From Chiua virens (taxonomy: Eukaryota; Basidiomycota; Agaricomycetes; Boletales; Boletaceae): a stretch of 64,000 bases of DNA. Under the pieces are notes generated by a model that worked only from the letters and a program-made list of their open reading frames with translations, was not told the origin of the DNA and did not search any database. The position numbers were made by a program, and so were the translations under genes. Positions 5,105-56,395 of this stretch are shown one piece after another (within the stretch, counting starts at the first letter, position 1; every line of letters begins with the position of its first letter). The DNA lies in contig JAHNUO010000011.1 of assembly GCA_019787685.1 (NCBI GenBank), positions 1,798,001 to 1,862,000 on the forward strand, in the 5' to 3' direction.

Positions 5105-5260
5105 GATTCGAGAAGTAGATTTGGCATTAATTCTGATGGGCTGTGACGGCGCTGTCAGACAGTACTAGTGTCGCTACCAGTAGTACCAGTTTTATTCGCC
5201 ACTAAGCCACCATGGTTGCGTTCGCCTGCTTGGATACCTTAAGTTCAATGTCCCATTTCA
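5105..5260 (+). repeat. direct repeat copy 2, left half
   Basis: Homologous to about 15-185 of copy 1, with shared AGATTTGGCATTA, CCACTAAGCCA and CCTTAAG..TTCAATG. It is cut at 5260, where the LINE begins, and resumes at 11583. Confidence 0.6.
5247..5260 (+). repeat. target-site duplication, left
   Basis: AATGTCCCATTTCA here recurs at 11569-11582 immediately after the poly-A tail. The leading AA of the right copy could belong to the tail, so the unambiguous duplication is 12 bp. The two copies are identical. Confidence 0.85.
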
Positions 5261-5423
5261 ACGCTTCTTGTCCTTGTACCACGTGGCACCCCCACTGGGA
5301 CCCCGAACAAAAATCTTCGGTCGACGTAGAAGCCATAGCAGCAAACCCCCAGACATCACACAACAATCCATACCTTCCAAAACAGGCCAACAAGCCTCGC
5401 TATCGCCACCCCCGAGCCCACAA

Positions 5424-7136
5424 ATGGCCATAGGCAGTGGGAAACCATCAACGGGGATCGGACCCAGCGAATCATCCTCGCGCGCGCCGACCCCAACACA
5501 ACATTCAGTCAACACTAGAAACACTAGAAGTGCCACCCTAGGCACCAAAACCATTGTAGAGGAGATAAAGAACCAGAACCTCACGGTCAAAGACGTGAAA
5601 GGTGGTGGAGCATACCTAGAGAAAGCACTCCTCTGCGTGGTGGGCGAATCCTTCACCATAGAGCACCTGGCACACACACTCTTTCATATCACACAGCTAG
5701 ATAAAGTCCCCAAACCAGCCAAAGAAGCAATCCGAGCCGTCGCATTCCTACTGGAAAGAGAAGCCACACTTCGCTTCCAATCCCAGCTCACTTCCCACGT
5801 TACTGAAACAGTCGCAGACGAAGTAGCCAACCGAGTTATCATTGCACTATCATCCCACGTCGCAAACCTCTCCCAAACCACAGATGAACTCAGCGACCAC
5901 GTAAAAACCATCCAAACAGCAGTCTCCAACCCTCCCAACCCCCTCAGCCAAACGAAATCCTACAGCGACGCGCTAAAGGGCCACACAGCCACACAAGCCT
6001 CCCAGCCAGCAAATACGGCAATTGCCCGCGCGGCAACCAAGGAACGACAGGTCCTCCTAGACCCCCAGGAAGGACACTCCCTCCACAAAGATGCCACAGA
6101 CTCCTCTGACCTCGCAGATAAACTCACCCTGGCAATCGATGACCTACGCACCGAGAGCTCCCCACCGGCCACCATCAAAGCTATCAGCAAACTTCGTAAC
6201 GGTGGCCTAATACTCGAATTCGACAGCGCCAAATCAGCCAAATGGATACAATCGGAGGAGATCAAGGAACGGTTCCTTACCTCACTCGACGTCCCCTCCG
6301 AAATCAAACAACGTACCTACCAAATCCTAGTCCCATTCCTACCAGTATCGACGATCTTAGACGACCCAAACTGGCTACGAGGAGTAGAAATGGAGAACAA
6401 CATAGAGGACAAGACGATTACCAATGCTAGATGGGTCAAACAGATAGAGAAGAGAGCGGATAACCAACGAGTAGCCCACGCCATCATCACGCTATCCTGT
6501 GCCGATGCCGCCAACATCCTAATACGCGATGGACTATACGTCAGAAAAGACAAACTCCACCCCAAAAAAGAGAAACGCAACCCTATCCGATGCGTCAAAT
6601 GCCAAGGCTGGGGACATATGGCCAAAAACTGTAACGCAAAGGACGACACTTGCGCCAAATGCGCTGGCCACCATCGTACTAGCTCCTGCCAGGAACAAAC
6701 ACACTATTGCATCAACTGCGACACCAAAGGCCACTCTAGCGACGAATCTCGATGCCCCACCTACGCCAACAAATGCGCGGAATTCGACGCTAAGTACCCT
6801 GAAAACGTCATGCCCTACTACCCAACATCCGAGCCCTGGACGCACGTCATGCTACCCCCTAAACCAGCCCCAAACCAGGCTCCTCGTACCCGCAACAAAC
6901 GAACAACACACCCACCCCAAACTACGACTATGCGCCAAACGACCATCGACTCCATACCCCAACGAGGGACGACATCAAACCCGCCGCCGCCTACCACCTT
7001 CCCCAACAACATATCTCCCCCCCCCCTCCTCTCTCAACCCCGACGCCCACCACCCTCCCAACCTCCCCCGCGCCACCAAACCCGCCAAAACCCACGCCCA
7101 GACAACAGACCTGACCCCCCCACCCCCTCCCAATGA
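5424..7136 (+). CDS. LINE ORF1, gag-like RNA-binding protein
   Basis: A 570-residue basic protein expected to bind the element's RNA and form the ribonucleoprotein for retrotransposition. The first in-frame ATG is at 5424; the frame is open from 5268 without a start codon. Three zinc knuckles lie at about residues 388-450: a classical CX2CX4HX4C (CVKCQGWGHMAKNC), a shorter CAKC..H..C unit, and CINCDTKGHSSDESRC. A central helical region precedes them, and the C-terminus is rich in Pro, Thr and Arg. Codon use is strongly C/A-ending (ACC, CCC, ACA), unlike the host genes around it. The stop overlaps the ORF2 start by four bases. Confidence 0.88.
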   Translation: MAIGSGKPSTGIGPSESSSRAPTPTQHSVNTRNTRSATLGTKTIVEEIKNQNLTVKDVKGGGAYLEKALLCVVGESFTIEHLAHTLFHITQLDKVPKPAKEAIRAVAFLLEREATLRFQSQLTSHVTETVADEVANRVIIALSSHVANLSQTTDELSDHVKTIQTAVSNPPNPLSQTKSYSDALKGHTATQASQPANTAIARAATKERQVLLDPQEGHSLHKDATDSSDLADKLTLAIDDLRTESSPPATIKAISKLRNGGLILEFDSAKSAKWIQSEEIKERFLTSLDVPSEIKQRTYQILVPFLPVSTILDDPNWLRGVEMENNIEDKTITNARWVKQIEKRADNQRVAHAIITLSCADAANILIRDGLYVRKDKLHPKKEKRNPIRCVKCQGWGHMAKNCNAKDDTCAKCAGHHRTSSCQEQTHYCINCDTKGHSSDESRCPTYANKCAEFDAKYPENVMPYYPTSEPWTHVMLPPKPAPNQAPRTRNKRTTHPPQTTTMRQTTIDSIPQRGTTSNPPPPTTFPNNISPPPLLSQPRRPPPSQPPPRHQTRQNPRPDNRPDPPTPSQ

Positions 7137-10100
7137 ATGACGCCCAAACGGAACCCACACGACTGAGGATATGGCAACAAAACCTTAACAAATCATTCAC
7201 GGCCCAGCACTCACTACTGAACAACACCACCAACGAGGAATGGGACATAGTAGCTATACAAGAACCTTTCTTTAACACTTATGGAAACACACCCTCTAAC
7301 CCACTTTTTCATGTAGTCTACCCAACCACCTGCTACACCTCCGAAAAAAGATATCGCGCAGTCACTCTTATCTCCAAGAAAATGAGCACAAACGCCTGGA
7401 TACAAATCCCCTTCCCATCCTCTGACGTAGTAGTCATACAACTCACCGGATCCTTTGGAACCTGCACCATCTTCAACATCTACAACGACTGCAAAAACAA
7501 CGACACCATTGAAGCAATTGAAACATTCCTGGAAAATAATATCAGGCGAGTCCGTCCAAACGATGAAAGTCATATGATCTGGCTCGGCGACTTCAACAGA
7601 CACCACCCACTATGGGAAGACGAGCAAAACCCCCACCTAATGACACAAACCTACCTCAACGCGGCTGAACCCCTCATCAAACTCATAGTCGAATATGGCA
7701 TGATTGTCGCTCTACCCAAAGGAATGCCCACCCTACAGGCCCTAGCTACGAAAAACTGGACACGCCCGGACAATGTATTCTGCACAGACAATACAGCTGA
7801 GTCTATATTACATTGTTACACGGATCCATCGTCACGAGGACCACGCACAGACCACATACCAATTCTCACAATCCTTGACTTCAACGTCTCCCACGCCACA
7901 CGAACACCCACCCGCAACTATAAAGATGTCGAATGGAAGGAATTCAACAAGACACTCCAGGCGCATCTGAGCAATATCCCAACTGACGTACCAATCATCT
8001 CTGAAGCTGACTTCCAACGCACAGCACAGCTAATCACCACCGCCATCACTCTCACCATTGAAAACCACGTACCACACACGAACCCCTGCCCGCACTCCAA
8101 AAGATGGTGGACACGAGAACTACGCGACATGAGACGGGAAGTCAAGAAAATGGCAAAACGTTCGTACGAAATGAGGGAATACCCAGACCACCCCTCCCAC
8201 GAAGAACATCGCCTACACCGCAACCGATATACCGAAGCCCTAAAAAGAACGAAAAAGGAACACTGGGAAAACTGGCTAGAAGAGCTCCAGGGAGAAGAAA
8301 TTTGGATCGCTAACAAATATATCACCGCTGAGCCCTCCCAAATCAAAGCCTCACGTATACCCACACTAACTGTCAAGTGCCCAGACGGTACCACCACATC
8401 AGCGGAGACCAACGAACAAAAAAGCGAAGCACTAGCCTCCAGCTTCTTCCCGCCCCGCCCGACTACCTCCTCCGTACCACCAGACCCTATCTACCCAGAT
8501 CCAGTTCCTAGCCTGGAACCGATAACCGAAGATCAGCTAACCCGAGCGATCAAGAAGCTGAGCCCGCTAAAGGCACCAGGACCCGATGGCATAAGAAACA
8601 TCGTATTCAAGAAATGTCAAAAGACCCTAGTCCCCCACCTGCTACGTCTCTTTCACGCCGTATTCCTCCTCAACACTTACTTTAGTCCCTGGAGGGACTT
8701 CACCACCGTCGTACTCCGAAAGCCAGGAAAACCAGACTACACAGTCACGAAGGCATACCGTCCTATAGCCCTCCTAAACACCACCGGAAAACTCCTTACA
8801 TCCATAGTGGCTGACCAACTCTCCTTCCTACTCGAATCACACCACCTCCTCCCCCCTACTCATTTTGGCGGACGACCAGGCCAATCCACAACCGACTCCC
8901 TCCACCTACTAGAAGCGACCATAAAGGACGCGTGGCGCACCAAGAAAGTGGTATCCGTTCTCTTCCTAGACATCGAAGGAGCGTTCCCAAACGCGGTGAC
9001 CGACATGCTACTACATAACATGCGCTCCCGGAAAATCCCAGAAGAACTGATACTATTCACACAACGTGTACTCACTGGTCGGCGCACCAGACTCTCGTTT
9101 GACGGTTTTACCTCTGATTGGATATCGATCACTAACGGAATTGGCCAGGGAGACCCACTATCGATGGTAATCTACATCATATATAACTCAGACCTCATCG
9201 ACGTCGCGAAAGGAAACAAGGAGCTTGCCCTAGCCTTCGTGGATGACACAGCATTCATAGCAATAGGAGCCAACTTCACGGAAACCCACGCCATACTCAA
9301 AGAAATGCTTGAACGCCAAAAAGGAGGCTATGCTTGGTCGTCTGCCCACAACTCCAAATTCGAAACATCTAAATTCGCACTAATAGACTGCTCTAGGAAC
9401 CGAAGCAAGGAACATCCTCCCCTCAAAACACGCAACACAACCATCCACCCAGTCAAATCCCACAAATTCCTCGGAGTCATAGTTGACAACGAACTTAGAT
9501 GGAACGACCATGCCAACTACGCAATCGGAAAAGGGGTGGCATATGTTGCTCAGCTACGTAGACTCTCCAGAACGACCAAGGGTCTCCCACTGACACTCAT
9601 GCGTAAACTATACGTCTCAGTGGCTCTGCCTAAGATGCTATACGCAGTCGACGTGTGGTGCACCCCCCCATATCAAGGAAGCGCCGACGACACACCCCAA
9701 AACGGCTCGCTGCAGATTACGAAGAAACTCAACATGGTCCAGCACACGGCCCTACTGGGAATCACGGGAGCTCTACGATCAACAGCAACAGACACACTAG
9801 AAGCCCATGCAAAACTTATGCCAATCCCCCAACGTATACACAACCTATGCCACCACGCTCTCTTACGCCTAGCAGCCACGCCACCCACCCATCCCATTCA
9901 TAACAAACTAAAACGCGCCTCCAAAAGATTTGTCAGCCGACACCGCTCGTCCCTCCATTACCTCACCCAAACATTCAAACTATCCCTGGAAAATATAGAA
10001 ACCATCCATCCTGCCCGGCGACCACCAGACGAATCCCACCCCGCAAACATCCACATCGCCCCATCTAAGGACGAATCGATAGCTGAACATGACCGGATCA

Positions 10101-11068
10101 ACACCGGCACCCGAATCTACACAGATGGCTCAGGAGTCGATGGAATGATAGGAGCGGCAGCAGTCATGTTCACAAGCGACCAAAACCCCAAAACCCTACG
10201 CTACCACCTAGGGACTGAGGACGAACACACCGTATATGAGGCGGAAGCAGTCGGGTTGACACTGGCGGCCCACATGCTAACCACGGAACGAGACATAACC
10301 ACTCCTGTACACATCTTCGTGGACAACCAAGCCGCAATTAAATCCGGTGACGTCTTCACCACTAAACCGGGCCACTACCTGATAGACCGATTCCTCAACA
10401 GTCTCCGCACCGCAATCAGGAAACACAACCTATGCAAAGAAGATACTCACGTACACTGGCTGGCAGGACACCAAGGTATAATGGGAAATGAACGAGCTGA
10501 CAAGGAAGCGAAAGCAGTGGCCAGAGACCCGACGAAAAACACCCCCAGACGCAAACTACCCAAATATCTGAGAAACGACCCACTCCCGCTCAGCGTATCG
10601 GCACTCAAACAAGCACAGCGAAAGCAGGAAACGTTGCGATGGAAGCGCACCTGGACCAAATCCCCACGATACACTCGCATCTCGCGAATAGACGCTAAGC
10701 TGTTATCTGGTTCGTTCGTAGACCTCTCGCTGACCATCACGAGGAAACAAACAGCATGGCTAATATGGCTACGCACGGGCCACTGCCCTCTCAACACGTA
10801 TCTGTACTGTATCAGACAATCTGACACCCCCAACTGCCAACACTGCGGCAACCTGCCGGAAACCCCAAGACACCTCATCCTTGAGTGTCCTAGATATGCC
10901 CGCGAAAGACAAAGACTAACAAACGCACTACGCAGAAAAGCCCTCGTCCTGCCATACTTACTAGGGGACTCAAAGGCGATACCCCACCTCTTGAAGTTCA
11001 TCGAAACCACCAAACGCTTCAAAATATGCTCACACCACGGAAGGGACACGGTCAACGGACCGCTCTAA
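7133..11068 (+). CDS. LINE ORF2: endonuclease, reverse transcriptase, RNase H
   Basis: A 1311-residue polyprotein that nicks the target DNA and copies the element's RNA in place. The N-terminal exonuclease-endonuclease-phosphatase domain (about residues 10-240) has the IQEP, GDFNRHHPLW and RTDHIPI motifs. The reverse transcriptase (about 440-760) shows AYRPIALL, GGRPGQST, LFLDIEGAFPNA, GIGQGDPLS and the catalytic FVDD near residue 701. RNase H (about 990-1125) has YTDGSG, YEAEAVGL, FVDNQAA and HWLAGHQGIMGNERADKEA, supplying the D-E-D-H/D residues. A C-terminal cysteine/histidine cluster (about 1218-1255, CQHCGN..HLILEC) is typical of RNase H-bearing LINEs. The start ATG at 7133 lies within ATGA, overlapping the ORF1 stop, so translation is probably coupled by reinitiation. 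No internal stop or frameshift was seen. Confidence 0.93.
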   Translation: MNDAQTEPTRLRIWQQNLNKSFTAQHSLLNNTTNEEWDIVAIQEPFFNTYGNTPSNPLFHVVYPTTCYTSEKRYRAVTLISKKMSTNAWIQIPFPSSDVVVIQLTGSFGTCTIFNIYNDCKNNDTIEAIETFLENNIRRVRPNDESHMIWLGDFNRHHPLWEDEQNPHLMTQTYLNAAEPLIKLIVEYGMIVALPKGMPTLQALATKNWTRPDNVFCTDNTAESILHCYTDPSSRGPRTDHIPILTILDFNVSHATRTPTRNYKDVEWKEFNKTLQAHLSNIPTDVPIISEADFQRTAQLITTAITLTIENHVPHTNPCPHSKRWWTRELRDMRREVKKMAKRSYEMREYPDHPSHEEHRLHRNRYTEALKRTKKEHWENWLEELQGEEIWIANKYITAEPSQIKASRIPTLTVKCPDGTTTSAETNEQKSEALASSFFPPRPTTSSVPPDPIYPDPVPSLEPITEDQLTRAIKKLSPLKAPGPDGIRNIVFKKCQKTLVPHLLRLFHAVFLLNTYFSPWRDFTTVVLRKPGKPDYTVTKAYRPIALLNTTGKLLTSIVADQLSFLLESHHLLPPTHFGGRPGQSTTDSLHLLEATIKDAWRTKKVVSVLFLDIEGAFPNAVTDMLLHNMRSRKIPEELILFTQRVLTGRRTRLSFDGFTSDWISITNGIGQGDPLSMVIYIIYNSDLIDVAKGNKELALAFVDDTAFIAIGANFTETHAILKEMLERQKGGYAWSSAHNSKFETSKFALIDCSRNRSKEHPPLKTRNTTIHPVKSHKFLGVIVDNELRWNDHANYAIGKGVAYVAQLRRLSRTTKGLPLTLMRKLYVSVALPKMLYAVDVWCTPPYQGSADDTPQNGSLQITKKLNMVQHTALLGITGALRSTATDTLEAHAKLMPIPQRIHNLCHHALLRLAATPPTHPIHNKLKRASKRFVSRHRSSLHYLTQTFKLSLENIETIHPARRPPDESHPANIHIAPSKDESIAEHDRINTGTRIYTDGSGVDGMIGAAAVMFTSDQNPKTLRYHLGTEDEHTVYEAEAVGLTLAAHMLTTERDITTPVHIFVDNQAAIKSGDVFTTKPGHYLIDRFLNSLRTAIRKHNLCKEDTHVHWLAGHQGIMGNERADKEAKAVARDPTKNTPRRKLPKYLRNDPLPLSVSALKQAQRKQETLRWKRTWTKSPRYTRISRIDAKLLSGSFVDLSLTITRKQTAWLIWLRTGHCPLNTYLYCIRQSDTPNCQHCGNLPETPRHLILECPRYARERQRLTNALRRKALVLPYLLGDSKAIPHLLKFIETTKRFKICSHHGRDTVNGPL

Positions 11069-20327: not shown

Positions 20328-22521
20328 ATGCTCAACCTGTTCCAAGCTCGATCCTCGTCACATGCTCCCCCGAGCCCCAGCATTCCGAGTGATACCGACG
20401 AGATTCCACCATCGTCTGCTCGTACCAAAGCGGAAAACGAGTTTTCCGAGGGGGGAGTAGCGGCGTGGTGTACCGTGATCTCAGGGTAAGATCACCACTC
20501 ACTCAAAGTGAGCGGCCCAATTGAAGATTCGCCTTACAGATTTCTCGTCCAATTCTGTGGCTTTGGGTATGTGCAGTGCAGTGGGTCGAAGATATTCTTG
20601 TTTCATTCTTTTGCGCAGGTACTTGAACTCTTTCGGCGTGTATCAAGGTAGGGTTTTTCTTTGGGACGGTGTCACCATCCTAAATAGATCGTTGATGGAT
20701 GATCCGATCAGCTTTCTACGCTCAACAGTACCTCGAAAATGAGAGCTCGTCGGCCGTCTCGTACGATATTCGACCTTGGGATGTCGCTCACTCCTGACCG
20801 CTTAATCTAGATGGATCGGGAGTTTGGGTACGCTCCTCATCACAGGGATGGGTCCCGTGTGTGGCCTGCTGTTTGACAAGGGGTATTTGTAAGGCCAGCC
20901 ATACGTTCGGTTTGGCACCAAAATTCTTACAGATAATTGGCAGCTACCATGTATTTATTGGCGGTGCGGTGCTGCAGTCTCTCTCCCTCTTCATGTTGTC
21001 CCTAGTTCAACCGGGACAATACTATCAGGTTTGATCTCCGTCATAAAACAACGTCCATCCACGAACTGAAACGCTTATCAGGTCTTCCTCGCTCAAGGTC
21101 TCATGTCAGGCATCGGACAGGGGCTAATGTATGTTCCTTGCCTTGCAATCCTCTCCCACCATTTCAAGCGTCAGAGCACGGCCATGATGGCTATTGTCGC
21201 CTCTGGCGCATCGCTTGGTGGTATCGTACATCCCATCATGCTGAACAACCTGTTGAATGGTCCTCTGGGGTTCCGCACGGGCGTGCGCATCAGCGCTGCA
21301 CTTGTCACCGTATTGTTGTCCCTAGCGTGCATCCTGGCACGTCCTCGGTATAGCGCGATGCGTCACCAGACGACGGAAATCAGCTTTTGGAAGGCGACGA
21401 AAAAGTGCTTCACGGAGGTACCGTCATTGTTGACGATACTTGGGTATGCTTCGACCGTCGTTTCTCGAGTTGGTTGATGCCAACACACCGATTCCGGTGT
21501 TTACAGGTTCACCCTCTTTCAGATCCCATTTTTTTATCCCTCTTTTTATTTCCAGGTCGATTCCCTTCAACATGGGCTCAGTACCACCTTTTCGTTCTAC
21601 TCCGTGAGTCGATCTGCACTCGTGCGCAAGAGCCACTGAATGGATCCGGGATTCCATAGCTGGTCATTATCAATGCAGGGAGCTTTGTCGGTCGATTCTT
21701 GACTGGCCCCATGCTCCGATTTATTGGCATAGTGGAGCTGACCATCCTCAGCACCGTCGTGTGCGCCGTACTGATCATTGGTATGATCTGGCTCAAGACT
21801 GTTGCGAGTGTGGTTGTCCTCGGGTCATTATACGGCCTGTTCTCCGGGATCAGTGGGTGGTTTTGTGATGCATCTCATGATCGACAGGAACTGACGTTCT
21901 TGCCTGTAGATATCGCAGTCATGGCGCCCATGCTAGGGTTGACATCCGATCCTGCTGAGCTCGGGTCCGTTCTGCACACTTGTCGTCTTCTGTCGCCTCG
22001 ACTAAGCTCTTTGATTCTGTCTGGCAGGGCAAGAATGGGGGTCGGTTTTGCAATAACAGGTGCGTTCGTCTGTTCTCTTCTTTGGAACGACCTGTTCGAT
22101 CAAAATACTGATATCTCACGCCCCGCACCCAGGTATCGGCAGCTTAGTGGGTAAGTCTCCGCTAGGACATTGTTGAAGACATCGCGCTTGAACGACGATG
22201 TGACATGTCGTAGGTTCCCCGATCTGTGGCGCACTGTTGACGGGCCGTTACATTTGGTGGGCGCCGGCTGTTTTTTGTGGCGTATGTCAGATTGTTTTCC
22301 TGCGAGCTGACCCATGGCGGCTAACCTTCCCGTTATGACAGGCGGTCGCGTTGGCGGCCAGTGCGTTGTTCGTCGGCGTGCGCTCCTCGTTAGTTTGCTT
22401 TGGTTCGACACGAGAGTGTCGCGATGATCAACATGTCAAACTTGTGAATGGGGTGGGCAAGGAGATCGGTGTGTATGTTGTGGGGAGCGACAGAGAAGGT
22501 AATTTGGTCTGCCAGCGTTAG
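20328..22521 (+). CDS. MFS permease, MCT-like (MFS-A)
   Basis: A predicted 12-TM plasma-membrane transporter of the fungal monocarboxylate-permease-like group; substrate unknown. ATG at 20328, 50-55 residues of Ser/Pro-rich cytosolic N-terminus, then GGVAAWCTVISG at TM1. About a dozen short introns split the gene. Exon products include FLVQFCGFG, YLNSFGVYQ, AFYAQQYLENESSSAVSWI, GMGPVCGLLFDKGYL, FLAQGLMSGIGQGLMYVPC, LSHHFKRQSTAMMAIVASGA, SLQHGLSTTFSFYS, LVIINAGSFVGRFLTGP, VAVMAPMLGLTSDPAELG and GALLTGRYIWW. All donors are GT. The frame closes at TAG 22519. The neighbouring MFS-B is its tandem copy with identical intron positions. Confidence 0.85.
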
Positions 22522-23812: not shown

Positions 23813-25981
23813 ATGCGCCGTTTGTTCAAAGTTTCTCAATCATCCTCCAACGTTCCTCCGAGTCCGAACGATTCCCGGGCCAATGCCATCGAGAAGTCTC
23901 CACCATGGTCTAGTATTCCCACTGAAGCGGACGAAGAGCTTTCCAACGATGGGGGAACAGCAGCATGGTGCACCGTATTTGCAGGGTAAGATCATCAGTC
24001 GCTCGAGGCAAGTTATCCATAGAGAACACCCCACAGTTTCCTCGTCCAATTCTGTGGCTTTGGGTACGTGCAGCTTCATCGGCCGAAGTTATTTTTAATT
24101 CGTTCTTTGCATAGGTACTTGAACTCTTTCGGCGTGTATCAATGTAAGGTTATTTCCCCCGGACGATGTCATCATCCAATATTAATTATTGATGTGTGAT
24201 CCGATCAGCTTTCTACGCTCAGCAGTACCTTGAAAATGAGAGCTCGTCTGCCATCTCGTGGGGAATTTGGCATTACTACGTCGCTTACTTCTGACCACTA
24301 CGTTTTCCAGATGGATCGGGAGTTTTGGTGCATTCCTCATCGCAGGGATGGGTCCCATGTGTGGTACTTTGTTCGACAAAGGATACTTGTGAGACTAGCG
24401 CTACATTTCATTCCGTGTCGATGTTCTGACCAACATTTTGATAGTTACCATGTATTTATTAGCGGTGCGGTGTTACAATCTCTTGCCCTGTTCATGTTAT
24501 CCTTGGTTCAACCGGGACAATACTATCAGGTTTGATCTCCGTCATAAAACAATGTCCATCCACGAATTGAAACGCTCATCAGGTCTTCCTCGCTCAAGGT
24601 CTCATGTCAGGCATCGGACAGGGGCTAATGTATGTTCCTTGCCTTGCAATCCTCTCCCACCATTTCAAGCGTCAGAGCACGGCCATGATGGCTATCGTCG
24701 CCTCTGGCGCATCGCTTGGTGGTACCGTACATCCCATCATGCTGAACAACCTGTTGAATGGTCCCCTGGGGTTCCGTACGGGCGTGCGCATCAGCGCTGC
24801 ATTTCTCACCACATTGTTGTTCCTTTCCTGCATCCTTGCACGTCCTCGGTATAATGCTATACGTCATGAAACGAGGCACATTAGCTTTTGGAAGGTGACG
24901 AAAAAATGTTTCACAGAGGTGCCGTCGTTGTTGGCGATACTTGGGTATGACTTTTGGTCTCTTTCTTCTCGAACTTGCTAGTGACGACGCGCCCCGAGGT
25001 TTACAGATATACCCTCTCTCAGATGACAAACATGTATCCCTATTTTTATATACAGGTAGACTCCCTTCAACATGGGCTCAGTCCCAACTTTTCATTCTAC
25101 TCTGTAAGTCAATGTACAGTCGCGCGCTCGAGCCACTGAATGATCGGGTCTATAGCTAGTCATCGTCAACGCAGGGAGCTTTGTCGGTCGATTCTTGACT
25201 GGTCCCATCCTCCGATTCATCGGTATCGTGGAGCTGGCCATCCTCAGCACCGCCGTATGCGCCATATTAATTATCGGTACGATTTGGCTCAAAAGCATTG
25301 CGAGCGTGGTCGTCCTCGGGGTATTATATGGTCTATTCTCAGGAATCAGTGTGTCCGTTTTTGCATTGATTGTCGACACGTGCTCACGACCTGGCCTGTA
25401 GATGTCGCGCTCATGGCTCCCATGTTGGGGTTGACGTCCGACCCTGCCGAGGTCGGGTGTGTACTAGATCTGCTTGCCTTTCAGTAGCATCGATTTATCG
25501 TTTGTCAACAGTGCAAGACTCGGGGTCGGCTTTGCGATCACAGGTGTGTCGAATTTGGTCTATCCTGTCTTGTGAATTGACGTCGTTTTCCTTGCTCGCG
25601 TCCATCGCCAAGCTATCGGCAGCTTAGTAGGTGAGTGGCTCGGCCCAGAGACATTGTGTCAAACATCCCGCTTGAACGTTGAACAACGGTGTCTGTCATT
25701 GTCCAGGGCCCCCGATCAGTGGTGCACTACTGACGTCTCGTTATATCTGGTGGGCGTCAGCCACTTTTTGTGCAGTATGTCTTGCGTCCCTGTCAGAACT
25801 ATTTCGTGGGAGTCGTTGGGTTAACCCTTGCGTGCTATCACAGGTGATCACGTTGGCGGCTAGTGCGTTGTTTGTCGGCGTACGCTTCTCGTTGGTCCGT
25901 TTTACTTCGATACGAGGACGTCACGGTGTCCAATGTGTAGTAGGGCCTGTGGATGGGGAAAGAAAAGAAGTCGGCGCGTAG
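23813..25981 (+). CDS. MFS permease, MCT-like (MFS-B), tandem paralogue
   Basis: Tandem copy of MFS-A with the same exon order and intron positions. ATG at 23813; N-terminus divergent in sequence but again Ser/Pro-rich and followed by GGTAAWCTVFAG. Recognisable exons: FLVQFCGFG, YLNSFGVYQ, ENESSSAISWIGSFGAFLIAG, GMGPMCGTLFDKGY, FLAQGLMSGIGQGLMY, FKRQSTAMMAIVASGASLGG, QVDSLQHGLSPNFSFYS, IVNAGSFVGRFLTGPILRF, ALMAPMLGLTSDPAEVG and VITLAASALFVGVRF. The stop is the TAG at 25979. No frame-breaking change was found, so both copies look functional. They differ most at the N-terminus and in the central loop before TM7, where substrate or regulation differences would be expected. Confidence 0.85.
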
Positions 25982-38647: not shown

Positions 38648-41600
38648 TTATCTGATGTTGTTTGCTATAAATTTTCGAAAATGTGTTTAGAATGATGATC
38701 AAGAAGACTGATAACTTACAGATCAGATTCTGAGATATGACATGCATGATAAGCTGCTTCATTCCCTTGTGATTATTAAAGTCATATTCAGGAATGAGCT
38801 CAGAGATTGCTTTCTTGACAGCATTGATTGTGCCAGATGATTTGTAAAGTTTGTCAGCCACTTTGGTTGGATCCTGAACACCTTGTTGGTGTAGAAAGAA
38901 GGAATGTTCTAGAACAATAGCATAACCTACAGATACCAATGAGTGTAATCACTAAATGGTATCAAAAGCTAACCAATGGCAGAATGAAGTGCTTTGCTCC
39001 ACAGAGTGCCTTGCATTGGAAGCTGAAGTATATCATAAAATGTGAAGTAAAAATAATGATGCAATCAATGTACTTACAATAGATGAGAAGGATATTGAGT
39101 GTGGTACTGCAGCTGAGGAAGCTACAAGCTGATTCTAATGTGAATTAAGCAAAATGACAGGACAATAAAAAGAATAAATCCACATACTCTTGAAGATACT
39201 AATATCTACAAATTGGACATGATTGTTTGTATGGTGAAATATAGAAATATCACAAACCTCCTATGAAAGAAAAAGTGACAATGAGGTAAAAATAAAAAAT
39301 TGACTCATACCTGCTAAGTAAAATGGATAGAAAAGAAAATGTTAAAAAATTCAGGTTCTCAAGGATGAACATAAAGGCTCACATCCTAAGAGTGCATAAA
39401 TATTAGTATCCCTAGGAATTAAAGTCAATGAAAGATCACTTACAAACTATAAGTATGAGAACAAGAATAAGATAGATATGGATCAGCGTTCTTTTTCACA
39501 CTTGAGGTACTAGTACTTACTTGCTATGAATAAATGAACAAGGGCAACACAGAGAGGTATGGATCAGAACCATTCTGGAAGACCCTTCACAATCAGAGCA
39601 CTTACTTCCTTTGAATAAGAGAACAAGGGCAACACAGAGGAGCATGGATCAGCATCCTTCTGAAAGTCCCTTCAAATCAGAGCACTTACTTCCTATAAAT
39701 GTGAGGACAATAGAAGGGGCATACATAAATCAGCATCCTTCTGAAAGCACCATCATAATCAGAGCACTTACAAACTATAAATGAAAGAGACAGAGGGGCA
39801 TGGATTAGCATCCTTTTGAAAGCCCATTCAGAATCAGAGCACTTACTCGCTATAAATGAGAGGACAAGGGCAAGACAGAGGAGCATGGATTAGCATCCTT
39901 CTGAAAGCCCCTTCACAATCAGGGCACTTACTTCCTATGAACAAGAGGACAAGGGCAAGACAAGGGGGCATGTATCAGCACCCACCTAAAAGCCCCTTCA
40001 TAATCAGAGAGCACTTACAAACTATCAATGAGAGGACAAGGGGAACAGAGGGGAACATAGATCAGCATCCACTTAAAAGTCCCTTCAAATTCAGAGCACT
40101 TACTTCCTATGAATGAGAGAACAAGGGCAACACAAAGGGGCATGGATCAGCATCCACCTGAAAGCCCCTTTACAATCAGAGCACTCACTTCCTATAAATG
40201 AGAGGACAAGGGCAAGAGAGAGGAGCATGGATCAGTATCTGTCTGAAAGCCCCCTTACAATCAGAGCACTTACAAACTATGAATGAGAGGACAAGAGCAA
40301 GACAGAGGGGCATGTATCAACATCCTTCTGAATGCCTCTTCACAATTAGAGCACTTACAAACTATAAATGAGGGGACAAGGGGAAGGGCATGAATCAGCA
40401 TCCTTCTGATAGCCCCTTTACAATCAGAGCACTTACAAACTACAAATGAGTGGACAAGGGCAAGACAGAGGTGGATAAACATCCTTCTGAAAGCCCATTC
40501 AGAATCAGAGCACTTACTCCCTATGAATAAAAGGACAAGGGCAAGACAGGGGGGCATGGATCAGCATCCTTCTGGAAGTCCCTTCACAATCAAAGCACTT
40601 ACTTCCTATAAATGAGAGGACAAGGAAAGGGGCATGAATCAGCATCCTTCTGAAAGCCTGTTCACAATAAGAGCACTTACAAACTATGAATGAAGGGACA
40701 AGGGCAAGACAGAGGAGCATGGATTAGCATCCTTCTGAAAGCCCCTTTACAATCAGAGCACTTACAAACTATGAATGAGGACAAGGGAAAGACAAAGGGG
40801 CATGGATCAGTATCCTTTCAAGAACCCCATTGCAATCAGAGCACTTACTTCCTATGCATGAGAGGACAAGGGCAACACAAAGGGTCATGGATCAGCATCC
40901 TTCTGAAAGTCTCTTCACAATCAGAGCACTTACAAACTATAGATAAGAGAACAAGGACAAGACAGAGGGGCATGGATCAGCATCTGTCTGAAAGTTCCTT
41001 CACAATCAAAGCACTTACTCCCTATGAATGAAAGGACAAGGGCAACACAGGGGGGCATGGATCGGCATCCTTTTGAAAGCCCATTCAGAATCAGAGCACT
41101 TACTCGCTATAAATGAGAGGACAAGGGCAACACAGAGGGGCATAGATCAGCATCCTTCTGAAAGCCCCTTCACAATTAGAGCACTTACAAACTATGAATG
41201 AGAGAACAAGGGCAAGACAGACAGGCATGGATCAGCACCCTTTTAAAAGCCCCTTCACAATCAGGGCACTTACTTGCTATAAATGAGAGGGCAAGGGAAA
41301 CACAGAGGGGCATGAATCAGCATCCTTTTGAAAGCCCTTTCACAATCAGAGCACTTACTTGCTATAAATGAGAGGGCAAGGGCAACATAGAGGAGCATGT
41401 ATCAGCATCCACCTAAAAGTCCCTTCACAATCAGAGCACTTACAAACTATAAATGAGAGAACAAGGGCAAGACCAAAGGGCATGGATCAGGATCTTTCTG
41501 GAAGCCTATTTATAATCAAAGTCCTTACACTCTATAAATCAGAAGACATAGATTAGATTTTATGAACATGACTATTGATTTGTACTATATGTTACAAGCT

Positions 41601-42925
41601 TGCTTACCTCAATATGTGGAAACCATGATGCAATTGCCTCCCTCATCGACTGCTGTTCAGCACTAGTGAGTGACTCATTTACCCTGTGTTTGTGGTCTAT
41701 GAAAGGTATCAGAATCCTATAAGATATTTAACAGGTATACTCAATGATGGACACTTTATCTAATTACCTTTCCATGGCAAACTCAATGCAGAGCATGATG
41801 TTTTTGTGTTGTGTAGTCACAAGTAGCATTTGCAGGGTTTCTTCATCTAAGGCCCTCACAGTCATTTCAATGAGAAGTTTACACCCCTCATTAGACTTGT
41901 TCAAGTCTTTATGCATGACATCAGTTTGCATGTCCTGTAAAAATAAAATACATACCCCTTAATTCCACATACAATTTTGGTGGATACCTCATACTCTGCA
42001 TCCTCCACCATACAGGATTACACTTTAACATCCTCTCAGCATTTTCCTGTCCCCTCACAAGTCTTTCCTCTTGGGGTAGCTTTTTCTCCTCATGTGTTAA
42101 GGCTGCAAGGCCTTGCAGCAGAAGTGCATCACATTTTGTGAGCACAAGTATGACAGGCACTGCAAACAAACATGAAAAATGAACAAGTGGTCATTATAGT
42201 TGAGGAATGTTTACCATTTCCAGTATCACACTCATCAAAAAACTTTTCCTCGGCAGCCAAGACTGCCCGGTGGTATTGATCCATAGGAATACAGTACCTA
42301 TTCGATAACATGTCATTGTTGGTACATACATGCTGCTGTCCCTGGTTACCATATGGCATGGATACGGTTCTTCAAAAATGTTGTATTTGCACGGTCTGAA
42401 ACAAAGTCCTTCATCTTCTCGAATTCTTCTATACTTCCAGCTTCGAAGCCCTGTGAGTCGTGAAAAATGAAATTCGGGTTGCTTCGAAAGACCAATTCAT
42501 TCTCGATATCATGAATTCCGAGCTGGAGATGTGTTAGTCGAATGATGCTGATAACGAGCTCACAGTCACGGAATTGTGACTGTGGAATTCACATCCGTGG
42601 TTCCCTCGATCTCTGCTGGATCGACCTGATCCCAGACCATCAGCGCCCCGCGTCGACGTCTCGTGAGGAATTAGAATACCTTCTTCCCACTTCCATCGTA
42701 GACCTCTGGGTCTTCTGTAGAGTTACAGATCTGCTTGAGTATCGTAGTTTTCCCAGCATTAGCACGGCCAATGATAAGGATTCTGAAACGTCCGAATTTC
42801 TCTCTGATGTTGTCGATCTGTATTGTAGTGGATTCTGCGGGAACGTCACCGGGGGGTTCTCCGAGCACTTCTCCAGGGCCGTCCACGGGAGCTTTGGAGC
42901 GAAGGAATGGGAAGCGAGTGAACAT
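38648..42925 (-). CDS. G-domain GTPase (MMR_HSR1/septin-like), intron-array gene, 470 aa
   Basis: A member of the large agaricomycete family of G-domain proteins of unknown role. Seven 5' exons (42925-42680, 42625-42593, 42522-42350, 42297-42215, 42159-41956, 41906-41768, 41716-41608) encode the P-loop GRANAGKT (residues 53-60), IFHDSQGFEAGS (switch/G3), VLTKCDAL (G4), YPPKLYVELRDLNK and LDEETLQMLLVTTQHKNIMLCIEFAMER. Five 3' exons (39205-39188, 39128-39078, 39022-38974, 38926-38720, 38664-38648) encode the hydrophobic C-terminal region ending near MHVISQNLISNNIR. Between them lie 28 candidate one-codon exons (see the array entry). The 5' exons end on a codon boundary, every triplet is in phase, and the total of 1413 nt divides by three. 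Exons before about 42340 have ordinary GC content. Later exons and introns are AT-rich with A/T-ending codons. Whether the triplets are included in mRNA is unknown. Confidence 0.78.
39444..41531 (-). repeat. tandem array of ~84 bp intron-like units with single-codon spacers
   Basis: Twenty-six copies in about 2.1 kb (mean period about 83.4 bp). On the transcribed minus strand each unit starts GTAAGTGCTCTGA (one GTGAGT, one GTAAGG), carries GCTGATCC in the middle, and ends T(C/T)ATAG or a close variant. Exactly three bases (forward AAA, TTC, TTG, TCC, TCG, ACT; that is TTT, GAA, CAA, GGA, CGA, AGT) then precede the next GTAAGT. Two further GT-AG introns with triplet spacers follow (CAG at 39311-39313, GAG at 39258-39260). 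None of the 28 triplets is a stop. Units differ by a few substitutions and small indels. The array lies wholly between the coding halves of the GTPase gene. It is not a CRISPR array: the repeats are the long part and the spacers are three bases. Confidence 0.9.
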
Positions 42926-48334: not shown

Positions 48335-49311
48335 ATGCCAGAGCAAATCACTTACTATCACGATACGGGAAAGGTACAGTGACTATAAATTTCTGAGGTC
48401 GGGAGCGATGATGAATGCCGCACAAGTTGTCGTCTTTCTGCTACAGGGTATATTGGTTTGTATTCTGTGCTGAGCAACCTACTGATCATGTCAAACGCAT
48501 GTCTCCATGCAGGTCGAAATTGCATTGCTCGAAGCCGGAGCGACCTACACATCGCATGGCTTGGATATTTACAACAAACCGGAATGGTTCGCGCGAGTCA
48601 ATCCACTTACTGGAAAGGCGAGTGAAGACATCCTTTCATACCACGGACACGTCACTGACTTGGAGATGTCACCCGGGTAGATTCCTGTGTTGACCTACGG
48701 GGGACCCACCGTGCATCCCGAAGAACCTTCCCCACTTTCTGCCAGGATCACAGAGTCTTACGTGATCCTCGAGTTCCTCGCAGATCTCTTCCCGAATTCT
48801 GCCCTTCTTCCACCCGCGTCCAACCCAACTGCACGCGCCCGTGTGCGGTTCTTCATGGACGCCACTACTCGCTATTTCGAGACTCCCTTCCTCGAGGCTG
48901 GCCGTAAGGTCCCAGGGGCTTTCGATAAGCTACTCCAAGGGCTCGAGATGATCCAGGCGTTGCTTCCTGATCCAGATGCCGCTGATGGGGGAGAGTATGC
49001 TATCGGGAATGAGTTTACGAACGCCGACTGTGCGATTGCGCCCTTGCTGGCGTGGATACAAGTCGCCACCAAGGCGGGTCCAGAAATGTTCGACTCTGAG
49101 GATGGGAAGATATTCGCGGAGACGGTGACAGGGCCCAAGTTTGAGCGGTTGAAAAGGTACACAAAAGTGTTGTTGGAGCGGGAGAGCGTCAAGAAAGTGA
49201 TTAATTTGGTAACAGTATCTCGACTCGACTCGTTTGGATGCTACTAATGTTTTTCTTGGTATTCAGGAGGGTATGGAAGCTAGGTGGAAGGTTAGGCAAG
49301 CTAGGGGTTGA
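48335..49311 (+). CDS. glutathione S-transferase (GST-A), 245 aa
   Basis: A cytosolic GST with a thioredoxin-like N-terminal and helical C-terminal domain, expected to conjugate glutathione to electrophiles. Exons: 48335-48373, 48427-48447, 48513-48617, 48681-49208 and 49267-49311 (738 nt). Exon 2 is only 21 nt (LSSFCYR) and supplies the family's SPFxxRV segment. Then come VEIALLEAGATYT, IPVLTYGGP (cis-proline region), EEPSPLSARITESYVILEFLADLFP, ARARVRFFMDA, and FTNADCAIAPLLAW in the C-terminal domain. Intron 3 has a GC donor (GGAAAG|GCGAGT). The paralogue GST-B at 55447-56395 has the same 21-nt exon and GC donor. The exact substrate class is undetermined. Confidence 0.88.
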
Positions 49312-55446: not shown

Positions 55447-56395
55447 TCATGCACTAGTCTCAGCTTGCCTAGCTTTCCATCTAGCTTCCATGCCCTCCTT
55501 GGGTTCCAGGCAAGGTCAGTAGCATCCAAACGAGCCAAAAAAAAGATACGCTTACCACCTGAACCACCTTCTTTACGCTCTCCCGCTGCATCAACGCATT
55601 CATATACCTCTTCATCCGCTCAAACTTGGGCCCTGTCACTGTCTCCGCAAATTGTTTCCCATCCTCAGAGTCGAATGTGTTGGCAGCGACTTGTACCCAT
55701 GCCAGCAGGGGCGCGATCGCACAGTCGGCGTTCGTGAACGACCTTCCAATCGCATACTCTCCCCCATCGGCAGCCTCTGGATCAGGAAGCAACGCCTGGA
55801 TCTTCTCGAGTCCTGCGAGCACCGTATCAAAAGCCCCTTGGGTCTTCCGGCTGGCTCCGAGCAACGGTGTCTCCAAATTGCGAATTGCGGCATCCATGAA
55901 AAACCGCACGCGGGCACGCGCCGTTGGGTCGGATGCGGGCGGAAGGAGGGTCGAGTCCGGGAAGATATCGGCGAGGAACTCGAGGATCACGTAGGACTCT
56001 GTGATCTTGAACGACAGCGGGGAAGGTTCCTCGGGATGTACAATGGGTCCCCCATATGTCAACACAGGAATCTATCCGGTAACACCTCAGTAACGTGGTG
56101 TCCGAAAAGACATCGTCACTCGCCTTCCCGGTAAGCGGATTGAGTCGTGCGAACCAATCCGGTTTGTTGTAGATGTCAAAACCGTGTGCTGTGTAGGTCG
56201 CTCCGGTTTCGAGCAACGCGATTTCAACCTTGAAGGTGTGATCAGTGAGTTGCTCGGCACGGGATATGAGCCAATCATATACCCTGTAGCAGAAAGGCGA
56301 CAACTTGTGTCGCATCCATCATTGCTAGTGACCCCAGAGACGTTACAGCCCCGTACCTTTCGCGCATCGTGATAGAAAGTGATTTGCTCGGGCAT
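55447..56395 (-). CDS. glutathione S-transferase (GST-B), 243 aa
   Basis: Paralogue of GST-A, in opposite orientation 7 kb away. Exons: 56395-56357, 56303-56283, 56228-56124, 56071-55556 and 55497-55447 (732 nt). It has the same five-exon plan, with a 21-nt second exon (LSPFCYR) and a GC-donor third intron (GGGAAG|GCGAGT). Motifs: VEIALLETGATYT, IPVLTYGGP, EEPSPLSFKITESYVILEFLADIFP, ARARVRFFMDA and FTNADCAIAPLLAW. It lacks the KAGPEM segment of GST-A. Large identical stretches between the two genes indicate a fairly recent duplication. Both look intact. Confidence 0.88.

What the first reader, a model, noticed from the sequence alone, without database searches (positions are those of the whole stretch)
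39258..41607. Tandem array of complete intron-like units, each separated by exactly one in-frame codon
Seen directly: about 26 copies of an ~84 bp unit. On the coding strand each reads GTAAGT...ATAG plus three bases, repeated head to tail, followed by two more GT-AG introns also separated by triplets. All 28 triplets are sense codons (about 11 Phe, 8 Glu, 4 Gln, 2 Arg, 2 Gly, 1 Ser). The preceding real exon ends on a codon boundary (PHIE|GTAAGC) and the following exon (ILVSSR) reads in the same phase. Fungi recognise introns by intron definition, and ~80 nt is a normal intron size here, so each unit could be spliced alone, giving a 40-exon gene with 28 one-codon exons. The alternative is one ~2.4 kb intron holding a minisatellite with redundant splice sites. 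Either way, it could make an encoded linker grow or shrink by one residue per unit. I know of no described system of this form.
Basis: partly seen in the sequence, partly recalled or inferred. Interest (0 to 1): 0.92.

Follow-up and report, generated by a model that had tools for sequence, protein, structure and literature searches.

The report
Hypervariable one-codon exon arrays
A bolete mushroom carries a large family of GTPase genes in which a stretch of roughly 14 to at least 57 amino acids is written as one codon per exon between nearly identical introns, so the codons vary wildly while the introns stay the same; it looks like a frame-proof way to shuffle a protein one residue at a time.

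Summary
The window is a contig of the bolete Chiua virens. The array sits in a P-loop GTPase gene with about 68 copies in the genome. I read 27 arrays (window plus 26 loci, 25 of these chosen by array matches, one by the gene): all lie in this family, in the same stretch of the gene wherever the flanks were held. Units are mostly 82-86-nt GT-AG introns separated by exactly three bases. Of 795 triplets, 792 are sense codons; stops are 3 of 759 where about 80 were expected. In old arrays splice sites are kept while other intron positions differ by 8%. One-codon exons with a constant GAT follow the array in 24 of 24 copies examined. Bolete-type proteins on 1.1-1.9 kb JGI contigs (apparently spliced transcripts) carry a continuous variable peptide here. 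Strikingly, introns in an array can be 99.7% identical while codons between them are saturated in diversity, mostly in random order and unlinked to intron variants. Paralogues with 97-99.6% identical flanks can have unrelated codon strings. I conclude units are spliced singly; the introns probably serve as recombination homology that shuffles codons in frame, under selection. Splicing: strong indirect evidence. Shuffling: inference. I found no described system like it.

The parts
38724..42925 (-). GTPase gene (N-terminal exons, array, C-terminal exons); joined exon query gives Pfam MMR_HSR1
   Evidence: exons located by tblastn; Pfam PF01926 E 3.3e-06, above its cut-off; inner exon borders approximate
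41608..41715 (-). exon before the array, ..ASWFPHIE, ends in phase 0
   Evidence: the matching exon ends at the same codon, GAG/AAG/ATG|GT, in 24 of 24 sequences scanned
39206..41607 (-). array region: 30 GT-AG introns separated by 29 one-codon exons
41529..41531 (-). first one-codon exon AGT (Ser)
39444..41446 (-). 25 one-codon exons of the repeat proper: F Q Q F R G F E F F E G F F F E E F E R F E E Q F
39383..39385 (-). conserved one-codon exon GAT (Asp) between introns unlike the repeat
   Evidence: GAT in 16 of 16 aligned copies and, read by eye, in 7 of 7 of the other subfamily and in L046
39311..39313 (-). one-codon exon CAG (Gln); CAG, CAT, GAG, AAG or ATG in paralogues
39258..39260 (-). 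one-codon exon GAG (Glu); CAG in L036 and L037
   Evidence: GAG in 16 of 16 aligned copies
39188..39205 (-). six-codon exon ILVSSR
38724..38921 (-). C-terminal exon AIVLEHSFF..VISQNL; 70 matches in the genome (about 68 genes)

Best explanation
Each ~85-bp unit is a complete spliceosomal intron followed by a one-codon exon. Splicing the units one after another yields a run of roughly 14 to at least 57 residues between the GTPase domain and a C-terminal helical part. The near-identical introns are the homologous DNA on which unequal and ectopic recombination act. An exchange inside an intron adds, removes or swaps whole codons and does not break the reading frame, because introns are removed and every exon is exactly three bases. 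Recombination keeps introns homogeneous; selection on the protein keeps codons sense and diverse. Arrays that stop recombining freeze: their introns then drift independently while splice sites and codons stay constrained. SHOWN: anatomy, family, triplet statistics, splice-site constraint, hypervariability and decoupling. STRONGLY INFERRED: splicing into a continuous peptide (about 0.93). INFERRED: recombination plus selection as the diversifier (about 0.5), and a recognition role for the peptide (weak).
For: Arrays lie between upstream exons and the C-terminal exon in 23 of 26 fetched loci (upstream side taken from exon 7 in L044); in L042, L043 and L045 the fetched piece ends before the C-terminal exon. 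Exactly 3 nt between AG and GT in 713 of 716 candidate sites. 3 stops in 759 triplets against 81 +/- 5.8. Codon-like base use: GC 69%, 37% and 2% at positions 1, 2, 3 in 696 non-redundant triplets. In eight old arrays AG changed in 0 and GT in 1 of 302 sites, against 8.3% at other intron positions; 46 of 201 introns changed length by a number not divisible by three. One-codon tail exons in 16 of 16 aligned copies, 7 of 7 more and L046. JGI short-contig proteins carry a continuous peptide here: P0006 WFPH-SQERFEVFREFVFEFANLDRA-VIPSSQ, P0121 WFPH-TKEKELLWLLGGLEEELLLERKRDRERNQLMNNLDET. P0006's best match among L021-L046 is L021, the window gene's near-twin (window not in that comparison). Codon p-distance 0.51-0.67 in each of 24 arrays while intron p-distance runs from 0.003 to 0.21. 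Codon order random in most arrays; intron variants unlinked to codons on average in 12 arrays. Unrelated codon strings beside 97-99.6% identical flanks in 3 paralogue pairs, alignable strings in 3 others. L036 has pristine introns in its 5' part and older ones 3'.
Against: No RNA from this locus or species was available; the JGI records are unnamed species and their library type is not shown. Plain recombination would homogenise codons as fast as introns, so strong selection for diversity (not demonstrated) is needed. Recombination must act on a scale under ~80 bp to decouple codons from introns. Block duplications should leave repeated codon words; only L022, L043 and weakly L038 and L021 show any, of 25 arrays. 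Codon words are not shared between 23 arrays beyond chance. L024 has one intron variant associated with its neighbouring codons. L036/L037 strings score above all 100 shuffles, though the score is only 6. Three arrays hold one stop triplet each, and one more TGA appears in a pattern listing (C2:2553691). Third-base A/T use is stronger than mutation bias explains.
Confidence: 0.6

Rival explanations
1. One long ~2.4 kb intron holds a minisatellite with redundant splice-like sites; no codon is retained.
For: TRF sees an ordinary tandem array; public Chiua gene models P0001-P0003 simply stop before it.
Against: Sense-only triplets, splice-site constraint, exact 3-nt spacing while introns carry out-of-frame indels, conserved one-codon tail exons, peptides at this point in transcript-like proteins.
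Confidence: 0.05
2. Introns are homogenised separately from exons, for instance by excised intron RNA or its cDNA serving as repair template; codons are old and untouched.
For: Codon third positions are A/T in 748 of 759 although introns beside many of them are pristine and keep their C and G, as if codons were older than the introns. Array consensus introns on different contigs are the same or within 3 bases of one of two masters. No linkage between codon and intron variants on average even within 15 bp.
Against: Unrelated codon strings beside near-identical flanks then need separate conversion of both flanks. No such pathway is known to me for spliceosomal introns. Third-position A/T exceeds the mutational equilibrium I estimate (about 20% GC), so a splice-context constraint may explain it instead of age.
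Confidence: 0.15
3. Introner-like mobile introns inserted at every codon boundary of a once continuous coding stretch.
For: Star-like divergence from a shared master intron; near-identical copies at many loci.
Against: Units appear confined to one gene family: 97 of the first 100 listed places, the other 3 isolated 11-mers (contigs C1-C3); introner-like elements lie in unrelated genes (PMC4457414, passages). Insertion every 3 bp in one phase has no mechanism known to me. Adjacent identical codons, expected from a 3-bp target duplication, are 153 against 138 +/- 9.8.
Confidence: 0.07
4. A targeted hypermutation acts on the three bases between AG and GT.
For: Triplet p-distance up to 230 times that of the intron.
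Against: Each array uses few codons (7.65 types on average against 11.4 if drawn from the pool, 23 arrays), few synonymous variants (GGA 146, other glycine codons 1), and multi-base differences between neighbours.
Confidence: 0.08

Closest known systems
Podospora anserina HNWD/NWD (het-d, het-e, het-r) WD-repeat genes
   Same: Fungal NTPase gene family with tandem repeats up to 100% identical within and between genes, a few hypervariable codons per repeat, repeat loss/gain and unequal exchange (PMC1805685 and PMC2873952, passages read).
   Different: There the whole repeat is coding. Here the homogenised part is an intron, the exon is one codon, and the protein is not a NACHT-WD receptor.
Cryptococcus CNN00420 intron gain by repeat expansion
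   Same: Basidiomycete gene with identical tandem introns created by duplication of a ~107-nt repeat that includes a full intron, EST-supported, copy number polymorphic (PMC2395259, passages and section 10 read).
   Different: A few introns in a single-copy gene; repeats carry exon ends; no hypervariable codons and no one-codon arrays described in what I read.
Schistosome micro-exon genes (MEGs)
   Same: Most of the coding region is in very small symmetrical exons, allowing proteins that differ by a few residues (PMC4350168, passages).
   Different: Variation proposed by alternative splicing; exons larger than one codon (recalled); a homogenised intron array is not mentioned in what I read.
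Aphid bicycle genes
   Same: Rapidly evolving putative effector family (PMC9168663, listing and start of abstract); many micro-exons (recalled).
   Different: Not one-codon exons and not tandem identical introns (recalled).
Introner-like elements
   Same: Near-identical spliceosomal introns multiplying in a fungal genome (PMC4457414, passages).
   Different: Dispersed in unrelated genes, not arrays one codon apart in one family.
Isolated 1-3 nt exons (Arabidopsis single-nucleotide exon, Drosophila hth 3-bp exon, Fusarium CYP621A)
   Same: Reports that exons of 1-3 nt are included (PMC4674806, PMC7392893, PMC12940212; listing and start of abstracts).
   Different: Single exons, not arrays of dozens.

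Membership tests
P-loop GTPase (MMR_HSR1-like, Boletales expansion) | G-domain above Pfam cut-off | tested here: met
   PF01926 27.6 bits against cut-off 21.9; the named hits among the 120 listed are Boletales fungi (order placement recalled)
Spliceosomal intron | GT/GC-AG ends under constraint | tested here: met
   AG 0 of 302, GT 1 of 302 changed in eight old arrays; 710 GT and 3 GC among 713 sites
Spliceosomal intron | removed from RNA of this gene | not testable with these tools
   no Chiua RNA; indirect support from JGI proteins
Introner-like elements | near-identical introns in unrelated genes | tested here: not met
   97 of first 100 listed places in GTPase arrays, 3 isolated; reversed-motif control 29 genome-wide (list covers contigs C1-C3 only, so copies elsewhere are not excluded)
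Micro-exon genes | coding region made largely of tiny symmetrical exons | tested here: inconclusive
   true of the array segment only; GTPase and C-terminal exons are of ordinary size
Micro-exon genes | isoforms by alternative inclusion | not testable with these tools
   no RNA data
HNWD-type hypervariable repeat genes | homogenised repeats within and between loci with a few hypervariable codons | tested here: met
HNWD-type hypervariable repeat genes | NACHT-WD protein with coding repeats | tested here: not met
   of the Pfam families listed only MMR_HSR1 passes its cut-off, and no NACHT or WD repeat is listed; the repeat body is intronic
Plain intronic minisatellite | triplets free to include stops and change length | tested here: not met

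The most novel reading that the evidence does not exclude
A dedicated system writes and rewrites a protein segment one codon at a time: introns are kept at a master sequence by an exon-sparing process (or arrays are rebuilt with fresh introns), giving a genome-wide repertoire of random, frame-proof peptides on a GTPase scaffold, possibly for non-self recognition between hyphae.
Probability: 0.3. Interest if true: 0.98.

Novelty: categorically new. Interest (0 to 1): 0.94.

Why it matters
It is exon shuffling at its limit, one codon per exon, repeated across a gene family. If the units are spliced as inferred, the spliceosome must join dozens of consecutive 3-nt exons, which makes intron definition and sequential splicing directly testable. 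It would also show introns with a use at the DNA level: homology that lets a peptide be rearranged without frame errors. The genes are poorly seen by annotation: three public Chiua models stop before the array, and a search with the C-terminal part of the window protein found no protein at E <= 0.01.

Tried and rejected
Single long intron with a minisatellite: rejected on triplet, splice-site and tail-exon evidence. Recent tandem amplification of units: rejected for most young arrays because identical introns carry different codons with no repeated codon words. Dispersed introners: the listed places fall in one gene family. 3-bp target duplications: no significant excess of adjacent identical codons (69 of 1000 shuffles reach it). 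Exchange of codon blocks between arrays: no shared words beyond chance in 23 arrays. Third-base A/T bias: only partly explained by AT-biased mutation. Rates are C>T 0.100, G>A 0.096, T>C 0.018, A>G 0.030, from which I estimate about 20% GC at equilibrium, against 1.6% seen; a splice-context constraint is likely too. Conservation of the CTGAT branch-like motif as a block was not significant (p = 0.1).

Led nowhere: Rfam scan, 0 matches; unit motif in viral contigs, 0; C-terminal protein searches gave only P0006 itself and P0121 or nothing; PDB fold search gave generic G-domain and dynamin-like matches; literature searches found no such array.

Limits: 21 loci were chosen because they matched the unit, four more from a unit-pattern list, and only L046 by the gene, so 'all have arrays' is not a family-wide rate; I read 27 of about 68 gene copies. 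The unit scan requires likeness to GTAAGTGCTCTGATT, so the 5' splice-site figure is somewhat favoured by selection. The 759 triplets and the introns were taken only where AG stands three bases upstream; that filter dropped 3 of 716. L044 and L045 were read with an exact GTAAGT scan, L046 with GTA[AG]GT, so these three do not test the spacing. L042, L043 and L045 were fetched in part, and L042's array probably runs on beyond the piece (a unit hit lies further on). Near-twin loci L021, L028, L030 were kept in the 759 count and dropped in the 696 count. The tail regex fixes GAT and GAG and matched 16 of 24 sequences; the other 8 belong to the 83-nt-intron subfamily, six of which (with L044) I then read. 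In that subfamily the 163-179 nt between the preceding exon and the first scanned unit were not resolved.
Full report
What is there. The window lies at C11:1798001-1862000 of a 48.3 Mb genome in 136 contigs. Public proteins on contigs of 1989098, 276507, 2635601 and 1618345 bases belong to Chiua virens, the same lengths as contigs C8, C34, C4 and C13 here, so the organism is that bolete. The array lies on the minus strand inside a P-loop GTPase gene (Pfam MMR_HSR1). In the window there are 29 one-codon exons between 41607 and 39206: one AGT, 25 of the repeat proper, then GAT, CAG and GAG between introns unlike the repeat.

A gene family, not a single curiosity. A three-unit DNA query found 492 matches in the genome. 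I fetched 21 further array loci, then four more array loci and one paralogue chosen by its gene (L046), giving 27 arrays with the window. The 21 all match the window gene's exons on both sides. In 23 of the 26 loci the array lies between upstream exons and the C-terminal exon; in the other three (L042, L043, L045) the fetched piece ends before the C-terminal exon. Protein searches with an N-terminal and a C-terminal piece gave 133 and 70 matches, the latter about 68 genes after removing two split matches. The distant subfamily L046 has the same architecture with a different 85-nt intron: 36 triplets, all sense, 26 of 35 introns identical.

Evidence that each unit is an intron plus one codon. 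A fuzzy scan of 24 sequences found 716 candidate 5' splice sites; 713 have AG exactly three bases upstream, and the other three are explained. Of 759 triplets in 26 arrays, 3 are stops (1 TAA, 2 TGA), against 81 +/- 5.8 when each codon position is shuffled within arrays. GC content at the three positions is 69%, 37% and 2%. In eight old arrays (151 units of 82 nt) the AG is unchanged in all 302 sites and the GT in 301 of 302, while the positions outside the 5' site, 3' site and CTGAT differ from the array consensus by 8.3%. There, 46 of 201 introns differ from 82 nt by a number not divisible by three. If retained, 651 of 681 introns (24 sequences) would bring an in-frame stop. Downstream, [TTT/CTT]-GAT-[CAG/CAT/GAG]-GAG plus a six-codon exon are intact in all 16 copies of the 82-nt subfamily, although their introns differ by substitutions and indels. 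Read by eye, GAT and a following pair of one-codon exons are also present in 7 of 7 copies of the other subfamily and in L046, with more varied neighbours.

Evidence from related proteins. Public Chiua models P0001, P0002 and P0003 end before the array. Several JGI proteins on short contigs run straight through. P0006 (438 aa, 1529-nt contig) reads WFPH-SQERFEVFREFVFEFANLDRA-VIPSSQ and P0121 (298 aa, 1094-nt contig) reads WFPH-TKEKELLWLLGGLEEELLLERKRDRERNQLMNNLDET-TMVSQM. P0021, P0027, P0078, P0091 and P0111 have other variable peptides at this point. Contigs this short with uninterrupted reading frames, in a family whose Chiua members are split by many introns, are most simply spliced transcripts; the records do not state their library type. 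P0006 and P0121 can be aligned by eye with the one-codon tail exons as L-D-x-x before a six-residue segment in the place of ILVSSR. Among loci L021-L046 (window not included), P0006 matches L021 best, the window gene's near-twin; P0121 matches L037 best. These are other species, so this is support by homology, not proof for this locus. A model of P0006 (mean pLDDT 71.9, pTM 0.64) has pLDDT below 50 at residues 310-342, which include the end of the peptide, between the G domain and C-terminal helices.

Invariant introns, hypervariable codons. In each of 24 arrays the mean pairwise distance between codons is 0.51-0.67 whatever the state of the introns, whose distance runs from 0.003 to 0.21 (L035 with only three comparable units). 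In L023, 17 identical introns carry six different codons. Codon order shows no excess of repeated words in most of 25 arrays of 15 or more units; exceptions are L022 (k=4, p=0.016), L043 (k=4, p=0.004), L038 (k=3, p=0.04) and L021 (k=2, p=0.023), uncorrected. In 12 arrays with informative sites, intron variants are not associated with neighbouring codons on average at any distance, and barely clustered along arrays; L024, with one informative site, is an exception. Each array uses a narrow set of codons, 7.65 types against 11.4 for random allotment (23 arrays).

History of arrays. The consensus introns of 23 arrays lie within 3 bases of one of two master sequences of 82 and 83 nt, across many contigs. 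Units diverge from the consensus in a star-like way (ratio 0.71-1.00 of pairwise to twice the distance to consensus). Array ages differ: distance to consensus is 0.001 in L023 and 0.108 in L042. Three paralogue pairs with 97-99.6% identical flanks have unrelated codon strings (L036/L037, L038/L039, L023/L024), whereas W/L021, L026/L028 and L027/L030 have alignable ones. Alignment scores against 100 shuffles mostly agree (22 pairs): p 0.01 for the latter three; 0.18 and 0.06 for L038/L039 and L023/L024; L036/L037 also has p 0.01, but with a score of only 6 against 30-39 for the alignable pairs. L036 has near-pristine introns in its first ten units and mostly older ones after.

Mechanism. I think the introns supply ~83 bp of homology at which unequal and ectopic exchange adds, removes and swaps codons without touching frame. 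Arrays that exchange stay homogeneous, and arrays that stop exchanging freeze and drift. This resembles the HNWD repeats of Podospora, where repeats up to 100% identical exchange within and between loci and four codons per repeat are under diversifying selection (PMC1805685, PMC2873952; passages). It differs in that the homogenised part is non-coding and the exon is one codon. The weak point is that exchange alone would homogenise codons too, so selection for codon diversity or an exon-sparing process must be added. Third codon positions are A/T in 748 of 759, also beside pristine introns; this could mean that codons are older than their introns, or that the base before GT is constrained by splicing, since AT-biased mutation alone would leave about 20% GC by my estimate.

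Novelty. Exons of 1-3 nt are known singly (listing). Tandem identical introns by repeat expansion are known in Cryptococcus (PMC2395259, section 10). Micro-exon families are known in schistosomes (PMC4350168, passages). In the searches, covering an open-licence library only, I found no account of arrays of one-codon exons or of hypervariable codons between homogenised introns.

Noticed in passing
window 5184-11068 +: A LINE-like retroelement with two long overlapping reading frames; the second has endonuclease, reverse transcriptase and RNase H Pfam domains, the first no Pfam match at E 1e-4.
   Followed up: partly
window 21006-22154 and 24200-25487 +: Two similar neighbouring stretches that look like broken or intron-split copies of one gene (similarity seen by eye); a piece of the second matches MFS_1 just below its cut-off.
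   Followed up: partly
window 48681-49247 + and 55481-56071 -: Two similar glutathione-S-transferase-like frames in opposite orientation (seen by eye; Pfam hit for the second just below cut-off).
   Followed up: partly
L046 780-3900: A distant GTPase subfamily has the same one-codon architecture with a different 85-nt intron and its own codon choice (CCT for Pro, TCT for Ser).
   Followed up: yes
G000 C2:2553161-2555501 and C2:2569668-2571763: Arrays that also use TGG and TTG codons, and one TGA triplet, seen only in pattern listings.
   Followed up: no
L022 5099, L034 4467, L042 5765 (positions on the array strand): Three units have GC instead of GT at the 5' splice site, the known minor GC-AG form (the known form is recalled).
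   Followed up: partly
L036-L043, just before the first unit: In the 83-nt-intron subfamily 163-179 nt separate the preceding exon from the first scanned unit, with a different GTGTGTG start; whether a further small exon lies there is unresolved.
   Followed up: no
P0056 (JGI protein): It departs from its relatives after the GTPase part and has a long G/S/R/K/E/V/F-rich run, perhaps a frameshifted or partly spliced transcript.
   Followed up: no
L026, L029, L031: Each holds one stop triplet; in L028, the near-twin of L026, the matching unit encodes Arg.
   Followed up: partly
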